Part shown: positions 4,674-10,984 of the stretch, in pieces | How positions within the stretch are numbered: position 1 is the first letter of the stretch | Layout: each line of letters starts with the position of its first letter | From: Oncomelania hupensis | Lineage: Eukaryota > Mollusca > Gastropoda > Littorinimorpha > Pomatiopsidae | DNA: 64,000 bases | Direction: 5' to 3' | NCBI GenBank assembly: GCA_036898135.1 | Contig: CM072514.1 | Location: 83,265,122-83,329,121, forward strand | Made by a program: the position numbers and the translations under genes | The notes under the pieces: model-generated | What the model saw: only the letters and a program-made list of their open reading frames with translations | The model's database searches: none | What the model was told of the DNA's origin: nothing

Positions 4674-5272
4674 TGTTACGTTGAAACGCGAAGGATAGTA
4701 TGTCTGAAACGCGCACGATAGATCTAATCGGTTTGCTTTGCAAAGTATTCAATAATAGAGTGTATTTACCTTTGATTTGAGATTGCATGGTTGTTAGAAG
4801 AAGCTTTGTATAACGTTGATAATTTTCGTTAGTCAACATTATTGGAGAATTCTCTAGATTCGAAGATTCCCGATAAATGTAAATATTTGAGAACATTCCT
4901 GGAATGTGAAGAAAGATGTATGACGTAAGACAGTGATGACGAAGTATAGAGCGATTGGTTAAATTGCGTCATACTCGATTGTTCCAAGGTGTTCTGGAGA
5001 AGAGAAAGGCTATATAGGTGCCGCACTGTTTCAAAAAGGAGAGATAGTTGACAGTGAGTTGGAAAGTAAAAAGGAGAGAGTGAAAAGGCGATTGTATGCA
5101 GTTGTTGATGTGTGCTGAATAAAAGTGGAAAACTTCATACGACGACTCCTGACTTGTTGATGATTGGACGGGTTGCGTGGATAAACGAATCTGGGCTACA
5201 CTCATCAGTACTTCAGCATTGGGGCTGAATCAACTACTGATAGAAAAACACTAACATCAAACGAGTGTAACA
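4674..5272 (+). repeat. 5' LTR of Gypsy copy 1
   Basis: Starts TGTTACGTTG and ends GAGTGTAACA. It contains a conserved TGACGTAAG block near 4921, a TATA-like CTATATAGG near 5010 and a polyadenylation signal AATAAA near 5118. Confidence 0.95.
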
Positions 5273-5800
5273 TTTTGGGGGCCAAGCCTGCGATCTACGC
5301 CATAGCCAAGGGTTCAACTGCTACAACAAGCGAGTCAACGTTACGAGAGGCAGTCATCGAGGATAGTCGCCAACGAGTTGCGTCGGGAGGGGCCAACATA
5401 CTGGGACTACATCCCCGATAGGTTCGGGTTGACTGCAAGGGCGTGTAGTCGCTGAAGAGTTGCTTCGTGAGCGAACAACAGATCGGGACTACGTGGCTGC
5501 CGCAAGACTACGTCGAGGGACAGTCTCGGAGCTACATCGCCAGTATTAGAGAGAGCGACGAGCGGACGTCGCGTCTACTTCAGCACAGGAGCGTATACAT
5601 CAACACCAGCGTGGTGCAGCGTCGCATACGACGAGGACAGCGGGGCCTGCGTCAGCGAAAGCGACTATAGTGGCAAGCATCAGCGCTACTGCAGAAAGCG
5701 TGCTGTTCTAGAACAGTCTAGAAAGGTACAGCACAGTCAAGAACTTTCCAGAAAAAGAACTTTCCAGTCCAGAAAAGAACTTTTCCAGAAAAGCATCAAG
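5273..5800 (+). other. Leader of Gypsy copy 1, with primer-binding-site region
   Basis: Just after the LTR comes TTTTGGGGGCCAAGCC, whose TGGGGGCC is the likely primer-binding site. The primer tRNA cannot be named. A short open frame at 5467-5670 is also open in copy 2 (29605-29847), but overall leader identity is high, so this is not proof of coding. Confidence 0.6.
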
Positions 5801-6697
5801 ATGGCTGACTTCTGGCAGAAAGGGGTTGAACTGAATCTAAAAGGCAAACAGCTGACAGAGTACGTCAAGTCTCAAGAGAGAATATGGCGTGAAGAAAGAG
5901 AAATAGAATTAGAACAGAAGCGTCTAGAATTAGAAGAACAACGTCACCGTGAAGAAAGAGAATTAGAGGAACAGCGACGGCGCGAAGAAAGAGAAGAGCG
6001 GCGTCAAGAAAGAGAAGAGCAGCGTCGGCGTGACGAGATGGAAGAGAGACGATTAGAAGCTGATCGTCAGCACCAGCTAGAGTTGGCGCGTATCCAAAAC
6101 AATCAGCATGCGCCACAAGTAATCAGCGACCATATGGCTCCAAAATTGCCAGCCTTCGTCGACGGGAAGGACCAGATCAACAGCTATCTGGCGAGATTCG
6201 AAAGGTTCGCCGAAAGCTCTAACTGGCAACCTCGAGACTGGGCGATTCGACTAAGTGCACTTCTGACGGGGCAAGCACTGGAAGTTTACACCAGACTGTC
6301 GAACGATGACGCCAAAAACTACGACGTCTTGAAAGAGGCCCTATTGCATTGCTACAGCTTCACAGAAAAGGGCTACCGTAAACGCTTCCGCGAATGCCGA
6401 CCTCTGTCAGACGAGACACCAAAGCAATTTGTGGAGCGCTTATCGTCATACTTACACAAGTGGGTGGAACTATCAGGCAAAGGGAAGTCTTACGATAGTC
6501 TCCATGACCTGATCGTGAAGGAGCAATTCCTCAATGCCTGTCACAAGGACCTGGCGACCCACTTAGAATTACAGAAGCTGCAGACGCTTAATGATGTGAC
6601 CGAGATTGCTGAAAGATATCTCCTCGCTCACGGGAAAACGCTGGGGCCACCCAAGGCGACGAAACCATTTCAGAAGACTGGAAACCATGGGAACTAG
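5801..6697 (+). pseudogene. gag of Gypsy copy 1 (premature stop)
   Basis: Starts MADFWQKGVELNLKGKQ in the same frame as copy 2. It has a long Glu/Arg-rich coiled coil (about residues 25-105), then a capsid-like domain (about 115-280). A TAG at 6695, where copy 2 has CAG, stops it 298 codons in. The frame continues to a zinc knuckle (CFTCNATDHRAANC, near 6775-6815). In this copy gag and protease share one frame. Confidence 0.9.
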
Positions 6698-7410
6698 ATC
6701 CAGGGGAGCCAGACGAGCCAGAGACAGACGGACTCTACGCCACCTCCCAGGGAAGGGCATTCAAGAGGCTGTTTCACTTGCAACGCTACAGACCACAGAG
6801 CGGCTAACTGTCCTCAAAACAAAAGTTGCGGACAGCGGAGCAGTACGGACAATGCAGCGGCGAGCAACCGGCAGAGGCGGTTCTCCAATCAACGGCAAAC
6901 CAGTAGATCTGACCATCAAGTGTGCGGCGGGAGCGTCATTCTTCCGAGTGAGACCGAGCGCGCAGCTACTCCCGCGGATGTGCAAGAGTGCATAACCGAT
7001 GGCCAACTTCTCCTTGCCAACGGAAAATCCATCCCCGTCGTCGCCAGCGCAGCTGTGACCGTACAGAACATGCCCGTTTCCAAGGGACGCGTCGGAAATC
7101 ATGAAGTGACTGTTCTAAGAGACTCTGGTTGCAGTGGAGTCATCGTCAGAGAAGACCTAATCGCTAAAGAACAGTTCACTGGCGATTCAAAATGGACACT
7201 TATGGCCGACAGCAAATGTGTGAAAGCGCCAGTTGCGAAGATTCAAGTCAGCACTCCTTTCTACATAGGCGAAGTAGAAGCGGTTTGCCTGAAGAAGCCG
7301 CTGTATGATTTGATGATCGGGAATATCGACGGCGCGAGACGACCCACGACCCCGATTCAGAATGGAGTCCTGCCTCAACCCAACGTGTCGAAGTTATAGA
7401 GGAGGATCCA
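6698..7410 (+). pseudogene. Zinc knuckle and aspartic protease region, Gypsy copy 1
   Basis: It is in frame with gag after the stop. The protease active-site motif LRDSGCSGVIV lies near 7112-7145. A one-base deletion near 7349 relative to copy 2 shifts the frame just after the protease. The protease matures the Gag-Pol polyprotein in this element class. Confidence 0.85.
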
Positions 7411-8406
7411 TTGACATTTCCCGATGGAGACCTTACAGAGCTGCTACGGGACAATGTGGCTACTCCGGCTCAGCCCTGCCGACCAGAGATCGTCGGTGCT
7501 GTTACTACCAGGGCCCAGGCCAAGAGAGACAAGACGTCTACGCCACTGAAGGTCGCCGACAACTCCAAAGCTGCTATCGTGGACAGAGGTAAACTGATCC
7601 AGCTCCAGGAAGCTGATAGTACTTTAAACAAGTACAGGAACCGCCAAGACCACGTGACCAAGGGCAGTGGCACGGTCTATTTCGAGGTGAAGGCCAAGAT
7701 CCTGTACAGAATCTTCCAGATCCCGAGGGTCAACAGAGGTAAACCACTACGTCAAATCTTGGTACCGTTACCTCTAAGGTGCCAAGTGATGGAAGTAGCA
7801 CATGACTCCATCATGGGAGGTCACCTAGGCATCAAGAAGACGTCAGACAGAATCCAGGCGGTGTTCTACTGGCCAGGACTTCATGCGGACGTCAGCCGTT
7901 TCTGCCGGTCATGTGACATTTGCCAGAAGACCATACCTCGAGGAAGGGTCCCGAAAGTGCCTATGCAGAGGATGCCTTTGATCGACCGACCTTTCAAGAG
8001 GGTGGCCTTAGACCTAATCGGCGAAATAAAACCTCCGAGTGAAGAAGGTCACCGGTGGGTACTGACCTTAGTGGACTATGCGACTCGGTACCCAGAAGCA
8101 GTGCCACTGAAGAAGATTGACACTGAAACTGTAGCAGAGGCACTGGTGGACATGTTCAGTAGACTTGGAGTGTCTGAAGAAATTCTGACAGATCTCGGGA
8201 CGCAGTTCGTCTCTGACTGCATGAAGGAGGTCAACAGACTGCTGAGCATCCGGCATTTAACTACGACGCCTTACCATCCGATGTGCAACGGGCTCGTCGA
8301 GAAATTCAATGCTACGCTGAAGTCCACCCTGAAGAAACTGTGCAGCGAGCAGCCCAGTTCGAGCTGCTGTACGGAAGAACCATCCGAGGGCCGATGCACA
8401 TCCTGA
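7411..8406 (+). pseudogene. Integrase of Gypsy copy 1 (truncated by 76-bp deletion)
   Basis: Contains the HHCC zinc domain (HDSIMGGHLGIKK ... CRSCDICQK) and catalytic core segments ALDLIG, LTDLGTQFVS and NGLVEKFNATLK, which supply the D, D and E residues. A 76-bp deletion at about 8356, compared with copy 2 positions 32523-32598, shifts the frame and leaves a false C-terminus. The rest of the integrase continues in the frame used from 8357. Confidence 0.9.
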
Positions 8407-9991: not shown

Positions 9992-10246
9992 AAAAATTAC
10001 TCGACCATGGAGAAAGAGTGCCTTGCCATCATATGGGGAATCCGGAAGTTCGAACTGTACCTTCAAGGAGTGAAGTTCGTGCTGCAGACTGATCACAAGC
10101 CGTTAACTTACTTGAACTCTGCCAAGTTTGTGAACAGTCGCATCATGAGATGGGCTATGTACTTGCAGAACTTTAACATGCGAGTAGAATCTATCAAAGG
10201 ATCAGACAATGTTGGTGCGGATTTTCTCAGCAGAGTGTGTGAATGA
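9992..10246 (+). pseudogene. RNase H C-terminus, Gypsy copy 1
   Basis: MEKECLAIIWGIRKFELYL and VLQTDHKPLTYL carry the remaining RNase H acidic residues. The frame ends ADFLSRVCE, followed by TGA. No integrase follows, so RNase H is the last domain. Confidence 0.88.
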
Positions 10247-10354
10247 ACAGAGAACATTGACAGTATCCAGACAGACTAAAATAAGTTTTAATTCTAGACT
10301 TTGTTTGTGCATTACGTTTCAACGTTGTTGAAAGAAATTGGGTAAATTTCTTCT

Positions 10355-10368
10355 TGAGTGGGGGGTTA
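10355..10368 (+). promoter_or_regulatory. Polypurine tract of Gypsy copy 1
   Basis: GAGTGGGGGG followed by TTA directly precedes the 3' LTR and would prime plus-strand DNA synthesis. The same tract precedes the copy 2 LTR at 34584 and, as GAGTGGCGGG, the LTR fragment at 35374. Confidence 0.75.
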
Positions 10369-10984
10369 TGTTACGTTGAAACGCGAAGGATAGTATTTTG
10401 CACGATAGATCTAATCGTTTCGCTTTGCAAAGTATTCAATAATAGAGTGTATTTACCTTTGATTTGAGTTTGCATGGTTGTTAGAAGAAGCTTTGTACAT
10501 GTATAACGTTGATAATTTTCGTTAGTCGATATTATTGGAGAATTCTCTAGATTTGCGTGTTTACGGTCGATCGAAGATTCCCGATAAATGTAAATATTTG
10601 AGAACATTCCTGGAATGTGAAGAAAGATGTATGACGCAAGTCAGTGATGACGAAGTATAGAGCGATTGGTTAAATTGCGTCATACTCGATTGTTCCAAGG
10701 TGTTCTGGAGAAGAGGAAGGCTATATATGTGCCGCACTGTTTCAAAAAGGAGAGATAGTTGACAGTGAGTTGGAAAGTAAAAAGGAGAGAGTGAAAAGGC
10801 GATTGTATGCAGTTGTTGATGTGTGCTGAATAAAGTTTGGAAAACTTTATACGAAGACTTTGCCTTGTGGCTGTTTGAGCAGGCTGCGTGGATAAACGAA
10901 TCAGAGTTACACCTATCAGGATTTCAAGCATCGGGGCTGAATCAAATACTGATAGAAAAACACCAACATCAAATGAATGTAACA
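10369..10984 (+). repeat. 3' LTR of Gypsy copy 1
   Basis: 616 bp, TGTTACG to TGTAACA, followed by target duplication GTCAC. It differs from the 5' LTR by several substitutions and small indels, for example an extra block near 10550-10572. Confidence 0.95.

What the first reader, a model, noticed from the sequence alone, without database searches (positions are those of the whole stretch)
4674..10984. Gypsy-type retrotransposon with integrase upstream of reverse transcriptase
Sequence: the integrase core, GPY/F module and RT are read in that order in a single frame (8357-9596), and RNase H ends the coding region at 10246. Established: Ty3/Gypsy elements normally have RT-RH-IN, while Copia has IN-RT. 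A group called Gmr1-like, first described in deuterostomes, combines Gypsy-type domains with Copia order. Inference: this is a Gmr1-like lineage, possibly in a protostome, and both copies in the window share the layout.
Basis: partly seen in the sequence, partly recalled or inferred. Interest (0 to 1): 0.8.

Follow-up and report, generated by a model that had tools for sequence, protein, structure and literature searches.

The report
Snail retrotransposon with enzyme-less swarm
The element is a jumping gene of a known animal group that carries its integrase before its reverse transcriptase, and the same genome holds thousands of shorter relatives that lost the reverse transcriptase but kept the rest, apparently copied and reshuffled with the help of complete relatives.

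Summary
Copy 1 (4674-10984, TSD GTCAC) reads gag(SCAN)-zinc knuckle-protease-integrase-GPY/F-RT-RNase H, but in several frames: the integrase core lies in 7309-8406, not in 8357-9596. It is a Gmr1-like Ty3/Gypsy element. The integrase-first relatives I put in trees form one clade in RT (100/100) and integrase (99/98), from coral to sea squirt. Gmr1-like elements are already reported in crustaceans and an annelid, so 'in a protostome' is not new.

The unexpected part is copy 2 (28781-35222). It is not a damaged twin. It belongs to a subfamily with one 489-nt in-frame deletion of the RT core and no RNase H. The genome has 3442 deletion junctions against 2134 RT-bearing diagnostic sites. Sixteen of 20 sampled RT-less copies have LTR pairs 98.7-100% identical, so they moved recently and must borrow RT. 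In protease-integrase 20 of them share 151 polymorphisms with 20 RT-bearing copies, with no fixed difference. Fst is 0.54 within 117 nt of the junction and about 0 beyond 717 nt. Best reading: a trans-mobilised deletion haplotype that recombines with its autonomous parent. Predicted proteins of other animals lack RT, or integrase (two lineages).

The parts
4669..4673 (+). target-site duplication GTCAC of copy 1 (partner 10985-10989)
   Evidence: flanks printed
4674..5274 (+). 5' LTR of copy 1
   Evidence: 88.6% identical to 3' LTR
5471..6697 (+). gag open frame (MADFWQK start inside) with SCAN-type capsid; ends in a stop
   Evidence: SCAN 1.6e-10, Retrotrans_gag 5.5e-5 (just under its cut-off)
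6698..7399 (+). zinc knuckle and protease (RDSGCSG motif read by eye), same frame as gag
   Evidence: zf-CCHC just under cut-off; no Pfam protease hit
7309..8406 (+). integrase: H2C2 (about 7762-7932) and core (about 7987-8280)
   Evidence: Integrase_H2C2 2.6e-21, rve 5.2e-12
8357..9596 (+). end of integrase, GPY/F, RT (RVT_1 about 9120-9590; YWDD motif)
   Evidence: RVT_1 1.2e-31; GPY/F probe
9569..10246 (+). connection and RNase H, in two open pieces separated by a stop at 9989-9991
   Evidence: RT_RNaseH 1.4e-21
10356..10368 (+). polypurine tract GAGTGGGGGGTTA before the 3' LTR
   Evidence: sequence printed
10369..10984 (+). 3' LTR of copy 1
28781..29416 (+). 5' LTR of copy 2 (RT-less), 99.2% identical to its 3' LTR; TSD TTCTC at 28776-28780 and 35223-35227
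29848..30996 (+). gag and zinc knuckle of copy 2, ended by a stop
   Evidence: SCAN 1.7e-13
30997..33480 (+). protease-integrase-GPY/F open frame of 827 aa with RT core deleted in frame; D,D35E triad present
33216..33222 (+). deletion junction of the RT core, 7-nt microhomology AGTCCAC
33514..33717 (+). about 64-bp tandem repeats resembling the 3' untranslated region, in place of RNase H
33718..34425 (.). insertion of another repeat, absent from 7 of 7 other RT-less loci compared
34584..35222 (+). 3' LTR of copy 2
35340..35646 (+). third, partial copy: PPT side and start of an LTR

Best explanation
Copy 1 is an old, broken RT-bearing member of a large Gmr1-like Ty3/Gypsy family (gag-PR-IN-RT-RH). 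Copy 2 belongs to a derivative of that family born by one in-frame 489-nt deletion between two AGTCCAC repeats, probably a template jump during reverse transcription; RNase H was replaced by short 3'-UTR-like repeats. The derivative still encodes Gag, protease and integrase but no polymerase. Its RNA is most likely packed with RNA of RT-bearing relatives into the same particles, copied by their RT/RNase H, recombined with them by template switching, and integrated normally. Because integrase lies before RT, an in-frame loss of RT leaves Gag-PR-IN intact. Shown: order, deletion, pattern counts, recent insertion, exchange with RT-bearing copies. Inferred: co-packaging, template switching, and which element supplies RT.
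For: Order IN-GPY/F-RT-RH and no integrase in the held sequence afterwards in the window copy and 9 of 9 other RT-bearing loci. RT-bearing family: 150 of 150 scored places at 94% or more (a capped list ranked by RT similarity, one is the window), 104 of 150 in open frames of 1400 aa or more. Junction pattern 3442 places, reversed control 0; RT-side pattern 2134, control 0. Junction in 20 of 20 sampled copies; 16 of 20 have LTR pairs 98.7-100%; 13 of 20 have an unbroken gag-PR-IN frame; 17 of 20 show a matching 5-nt target duplication. 20 RT-less against 20 RT-bearing copies: 151 shared polymorphisms, 0 fixed; Fst 0.545 at 0-117 nt from the junction (0 of 2000 permutations as high), 0.108 and 0.083 out to 417 nt, 0.033 to 717 nt, about 0 beyond. 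Eight copies picked by junction alone repeat this. LTRs look like one pool: mean identity 0.877 within 20 RT-less, 0.872 within 9 RT-bearing, 0.861 between.
Against: No RNA, particle or reverse-transcription data. In the tree of the whole 2217 nt the two classes are interleaved but still clustered more than shuffled labels (5 label changes against a shuffled mean of 13.6, 0 of 500 as low), so mixing is not complete. The 20 RT-less copies come from a list ranked by protein similarity, so they lean to intact ones; only 8 were picked by junction, all exact matches on one contig. Gene conversion between chromosomal copies could also mix the pools. The low pN/pS of RT-less integrase (0.02-0.06) cannot be credited to RT-less elements themselves, because they exchange sequence with RT-bearing ones. 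Copy counts rest on single 38- and 35-nt patterns with up to 2 mismatches.
Confidence: 0.82

Rival explanations
1. The RT-less copies are ordinary dead fragments: RT-bearing copies that lost RT after insertion.
For: Both window copies carry disabling changes; deleted copies are common in any LTR family (recalled).
Against: One junction at 3442 places and in 20 of 20 copies, 16 of them with near-identical LTRs and 17 with their own target duplications: the deletion was already there when they inserted.
Confidence: 0.03
2. RT-less elements are kept by selection on their own Gag-PR-IN, a semi-autonomous partner that feeds proteins to the common pool.
For: pN/pS 0.02 in integrase and 0.085 in protease, but about 1.0 in the new tail and 0.43 in the RT remnant of the same 20 copies; 0.056 in integrase of 8 junction-picked copies, none with an in-frame stop there.
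Against: Exchange with RT-bearing copies explains the low ratios without it; variants private to RT-less copies and seen more than once are few (14 synonymous, 7 nonsynonymous).
Confidence: 0.3
3. The pools are mixed by gene conversion between chromosomal copies, not by template switching in particles.
For: Would give the same decay of Fst with distance; no data here separate the two.
Against: Only inference: copies lie on many contigs, and copies with 99.5-100% LTR pairs already carry mixed haplotypes.
Confidence: 0.15
4. Domain order is an artefact of rearranged copies; the lineage is an ordinary Gypsy element.
For: Window copies are both broken.
Against: 9 of 9 loci outside the window; 86 of 86 listed relatives with both domains, of 120 listed; 49 of 78 new proteins integrase-first in the second list, while the same probes read RT-RH-IN in 5 conventional ones.
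Confidence: 0.01

Closest known systems
Gmr1-like Ty3/Gypsy elements (Goodwin and Poulter 2002, not read, cited in PMC8220671 and PMC2774666, passages seen; crustacean members in PMC3587641, passages seen; annelid LGF3 in PMC8220671)
   Same: Gypsy-type RT/RNase H and integrase with integrase upstream of RT; sequence clade includes sea squirt and acorn worm elements; about 210 nt between RNase H and the 3' LTR in L030 leave no room for env.
   Different: Host looks like a gastropod; the 2018 mollusc survey names no Gmr1 clade among the six known clades it retrieved (PMC6238403, one section and passages read). No RT-less mass-amplified derivative was found described in my searches.
Semi-autonomous Gypsy elements of wheat (RLG_Quinta, RLG_Sabrina; PMC11302176, abstract and passages read; PMC9744471, passages read)
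   Same: Amplified derivative; Quinta keeps an intact gag frame and is thought to be cross-mobilised by an autonomous partner sharing LTR ends.
   Different: Those lack both RT and integrase; here integrase and protease are kept as well, LTRs and coding region still exchange with the parent, and the host is an animal.
Ty3 of yeast (PDB 7q5b, 4ol8)
   Same: Best solved-structure match of both RT and integrase.
   Different: RT-RH at 584-1008 precedes IN at 1088-1447; order is swapped here.
Vertebrate SCAN domain, held to derive from a Gmr1-like capsid (Emerson and Thomas 2011, recalled, not read)
   Same: Gag of both copies matches Pfam SCAN.
   Different: Here it is still part of an element's Gag.

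Membership tests
Gmr1-like Gypsy elements | integrase upstream of RT, RNase H last | tested here: met
Gmr1-like Gypsy elements | no second integrase after RNase H | tested here: met
   10 of 10 loci incl. window, within about 840 nt held after RNase H; in L030 the LTR begins about 210 nt after RNase H, in copy 1 after 123 nt
Gmr1-like Gypsy elements | RT and RNase H of Gypsy type, not Copia or BEL | tested here: met
   RVT_1 and RT_RNaseH profiles, no other RT profile; best PDB match Ty3. No Copia or BEL row was in the tree.
Gmr1-like Gypsy elements | groups with deuterostome Gmr1 elements in RT and integrase trees | tested here: met
   one clade with Ciona and Saccoglossus integrase-first elements, RT 100/100, IN 99/98; the named cod Gmr1 itself was not available
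Gmr1-like Gypsy elements | SCAN-type capsid (recalled as a Gmr1 trait) | tested here: inconclusive
   met in both window copies and in 5 of 7 integrase-first relatives scanned, but not in the two deuterostome ones, P0063 and P0103; absent from 2 of 2 conventional proteins, one of which shows no capsid match at all
Gmr1-like Gypsy elements (copy 2 subfamily) | encodes RT and RNase H | tested here: not met
   no RT core or RNase H in L001-L008; no RVT_1 in P0001. It derives from the family but is not an autonomous member.
Non-autonomous partner of an LTR element (criteria in passages of PMC9744471) | same LTR ends as the autonomous partner | tested here: met
   TGTTACG...GTAACA in both window copies; LTRs of the two classes intermixed
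Non-autonomous partner of an LTR element (criteria in passages of PMC9744471) | same primer-binding site | tested here: inconclusive
   copy 1 and copy 2 differ by one base in the first 16 after the LTR; current RT-bearing copies not compared; tRNA not identified
Non-autonomous partner of an LTR element (criteria in passages of PMC9744471) | active at the same time | tested here: inconclusive
   RT-less LTR pairs 98.7-100% in 16 of 20; 104 of 150 RT-bearing places in long open frames but their LTR pairs were not dated
Non-autonomous partner of an LTR element (criteria in passages of PMC9744471) | expressed together and packaged together | not testable with these tools
   no RNA data

The most novel reading that the evidence does not exclude
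Integrase-before-RT order makes the pol gene modular, so that in-frame loss of either RT (Gag-PR-IN left) or integrase (Gag-PR-RT-RH left) gives still-coding half-elements; such halves arose repeatedly across animals and spread by sharing particles with, and complementing, whole elements, a two-part retrotransposon population in which the RT-less half can outnumber its parent and act like a defective-interfering genome.
Probability: 0.3. Interest if true: 0.75.

Novelty: new variant of a known kind. Interest (0 to 1): 0.55.

Why it matters
It gives a clean natural case in an animal where a coding but polymerase-less LTR element seems to outnumber its autonomous parent, with a unique junction that lets exchange with the parent be measured base by base. 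It also offers a reason why integrase-first order matters: RT can be lost without losing the rest. That makes 'parasite of a parasite' dynamics and retrotransposon recombination directly testable from genome sequence. For the order itself, it extends a known animal-wide lineage to gastropods; a large mollusc survey did not list that clade.

Tried and rejected
Two viral-contig scans found no relatives. Selection acting on RT-less Gag-PR-IN looked strong at first (pN/pS 0.09 over the protease-integrase frame of 7 copies; 0.02 in integrase of 20), but was set aside as proof once exchange with RT-bearing copies was seen. tRNA primer: not identified (one search found one tRNA-Arg gene in the window; no tRNA comparison was run). 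A search for integrase-less copies in the host got no answer. Searches for RT-less Gag-PR-IN elements in print; Gmr1 searches; SCAN. 'Not described' means not found in these open-access searches, of which I opened only the papers named. RT-less proteins of other species may partly be gene-model introns or fragments; 34 of the 120 proteins listed lack an RT hit, and many of these simply end early. Of the 20 RT-less copies, two gave no LTR pair (L020, L026), L027 gave a poor one (71%), L018 gave 86%; L014, L020 and L027 show no matching target duplication. Seven of the 20 (L009-L015) are the same places as L002-L008.
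Full report
WHAT IS IN THE WINDOW. Copy 1 spans 4674-10984 between LTRs that are 88.6% identical and flanked by GTCAC on both sides. Pfam reads SCAN (1.6e-10) with a sub-threshold Retrotrans_gag, a sub-threshold zinc knuckle, Integrase_H2C2 (2.6e-21) and rve (5.2e-12), RVT_1 (1.2e-31), and RT_RNaseH (1.4e-21), in that order; no protease profile matched, the protease is read by eye. Copy 1 carries a stop after gag, frame changes, a stop inside RNase H, and a 76-nt gap at 8357 relative to copy 2. Copy 2 spans 28781-35222, LTRs 99.2% identical, flanked by TTCTC. 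Its frame 30997-33480 runs 827 aa through protease, integrase and GPY/F and then skips the RT core; RNase H is absent. The integrase has a D,D35E triad. A third partial LTR lies at 35340-35646.

IT IS GMR1-LIKE. Of the 150, 104 lie in open frames of 1400 aa or more. In 9 of 9 loci cut out outside the window the probes read IN-GPY/F-RT-RNase H, with no integrase in the roughly 840 nt held afterwards; two of the nine have integrase in two overlapping frames. In L030 the polypurine tract and 3' LTR follow about 210 nt after RNase H. Among the 120 proteins listed by an integrase search (3146 passed), 86 have both domains and integrase comes first in 86 of 86; 34 have no RT hit. In a second list, from the RT of a Ciona element (4385 passed, 120 listed), 78 proteins were new: 49 integrase-first, 24 with no integrase hit, 5 with the conventional RT-RH-IN order (four named Cordylochernes, one Centaurea; long fused models, 38-44% identical to the query), which shows that the probes can see the usual order. 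Trees of 29 RT rows and 27 integrase rows put the Gmr1-like rows in one clade, support 100/100 and 99/98, with coral, gastropods, shrimp, barnacle, acorn worm and sea squirt inside. Rows were chosen by me; the root is a midpoint; Ty3 and P0122_0 have long branches; no Copia, BEL or named cod Gmr1 sequence was available. Ty3 is the best solved-structure match and has the opposite order. The host looks like a gastropod because the nearest named proteins are from Littorina, Babylonia and Pomacea and the window groups with Littorina; the host itself is unnamed. SCAN is not a clean marker: it matched 5 of 7 integrase-first relatives scanned, not the two deuterostome ones.

ALREADY KNOWN. [quoted passage not shown] another annelid paper lists Gmr1 among clades present in several phyla (PMC8556966, passages read). 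A survey of molluscs lists six known Gypsy clades retrieved, not Gmr1, and 16 new ones (PMC6238403, one section and passages read); some of those may be Gmr1-like, since its tree used RT/RNase H alone.

THE RT-LESS SUBFAMILY. Searching the host with copy 2's 827-aa frame gave 55 scored matches, a capped list, all over the full length at 97% identity or more (one is the window), 53 of 55 without a stop. In the seven other loci cut out by that call neither the RT core nor RNase H of copy 1 was found; five show the junction exactly, the other two lie on the minus strand and show it there. The deletion joins two AGTCCAC repeats and removes 489 nt, 163 codons, in frame: the spacing of the repeats is the same in 29 of 29 RT-bearing copies. 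After the junction come an RT remnant, a short new tail and about 64-bp repeats resembling 3' UTR sequence. The 38-nt junction, with up to 2 mismatches, is found 1730 + 1712 = 3442 times, its reversed control 0 times; a 35-nt pattern across the right breakpoint of RT-bearing copies is found 1077 + 1057 = 2134 times, control 0. The two patterns differ in length and variability, so the ratio is rough.

THEY MOVED RECENTLY. I fetched 20 of the 55 places (seven are those of L002-L008, and some were taken on purpose because their frames were shorter). The junction, with up to 3 mismatches, is in 20 of 20. LTR pairs were found in 18; 16 of these are 98.7-100% identical, one 86%, one 71%. In 13 of 20 the frame is unbroken from the start of gag to its end. 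A matching 5-nt target duplication is found in 17 of 20, some in low-complexity DNA. Elements without RT that insert with near-identical LTRs and 5-nt duplications were reverse transcribed by someone else's enzyme.

THEY EXCHANGE SEQUENCE WITH THEIR PARENT. Over 2217 ungapped nt of protease-integrase, 20 RT-less copies and 20 RT-bearing copies (20 of the 150 places) have 151 shared polymorphic sites, 132 private to RT-less, 127 private to RT-bearing, 34 with more than two letters, and no fixed difference. A single-origin deletion starts with one haplotype, so shared polymorphism this dense means exchange. Fst is 0.545 in the 117 nt next to the junction (0 of 2000 permutations as high), 0.108 and 0.083 out to 417 nt (19 and 12 of 2000), 0.033 to 717 nt (81 of 2000), and -0.018 to 0.006 beyond. 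Against complete mixing: in the tree of the whole stretch the classes interleave but are still clustered, 5 label changes where shuffles need 13.6 on average, 0 of 500 as low. Eight further RT-less copies, picked by junction alone in contig order, give Fst 0.505 next to the junction and -0.042 to 0.002 elsewhere; none of the 8 has an in-frame stop in the stretch read, one has a 1-nt deletion. Four-gamete conflicts rise with distance (0.34 under 50 nt to 0.57-0.59 over 400 nt). LTRs of 20 RT-less and 9 RT-bearing copies look mixed too.

SELECTION. In the 20 RT-less copies pN/pS is 0.021 in integrase and 0.085 in protease, but 0.43 in the RT remnant and 1.0 in the new tail; the remnant stretch is 0.159 and the RT core 0.046 in 20 RT-bearing copies. 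The tail and remnant are short (43 and 40 codons). Past the junction the sequence seems to evolve more freely; before it, constraint may simply be imported from RT-bearing copies by recombination. I therefore do not claim that RT-less elements are selected for their own proteins.

ELSEWHERE. Proteins of other species also lack one half. P0029 (cluster of 160) keeps SCAN and integrase and ends in nine residues that look like the end of RNase H; four Littorina models (P0017, P0018, P0022, P0025) share another RT gap but keep RNase H. Twenty proteins near P0165 and four others have no integrase hit but keep RT and RNase H (Pfam agrees for the two scanned, P0165 and P0142); these two fall in two places of the RT tree, so if real, integrase was lost at least twice. 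These are predicted proteins; introns or fragments cannot be excluded without their DNA.

VERDICT. The new part is the RT-less, still-coding, mass-amplified and recombining derivative represented by copy 2.

Noticed in passing
24063-24554 (-) and 42152-42679 (-): A pre-SET exon closest to human SUV39H2 (1.5e-37) and a chromodomain exon on the same strand: probably exons of one H3K9 methyltransferase gene, so copy 2 (28781-35222) would sit in an intron of a gene whose kind of product silences retrotransposons.
   Followed up: partly
relatives P0165, P0142, P0143, P0148, P0153 and 19 others: Gmr1-like predicted proteins without an integrase hit that keep gag, protease, RT and RNase H; the two placed in the RT tree fall in different places.
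   Followed up: partly
9441-9452: The RT motif is YWDD; tryptophan at the variable place stands in 31 of 62 motif matches among the first 121 proteins, many of them Littorina copies.
   Followed up: no
36416-38734 (+) and 51513-56525 (-): Two LINE-type frames (RVT_1; the second with endonuclease and zf-RVT, 1241 aa open, plus an upstream frame without a Pfam match).
   Followed up: no
20984-21684 and 50146-50811: Tandem arrays of a 29-bp and a 71-bp unit.
   Followed up: no
22179-22759, 33715-34298, 12967-13485, 57468-57618: An interspersed repeat present in several places and orientations; one copy is the insertion inside copy 2.
   Followed up: no
5275-5290 and the same place in copy 2: Sequence after the 5' LTR (TTTTGGGGGCCAAGCC in copy 1) matches no tRNA 3' end that I could recall; no tRNA search was made for it.
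   Followed up: no
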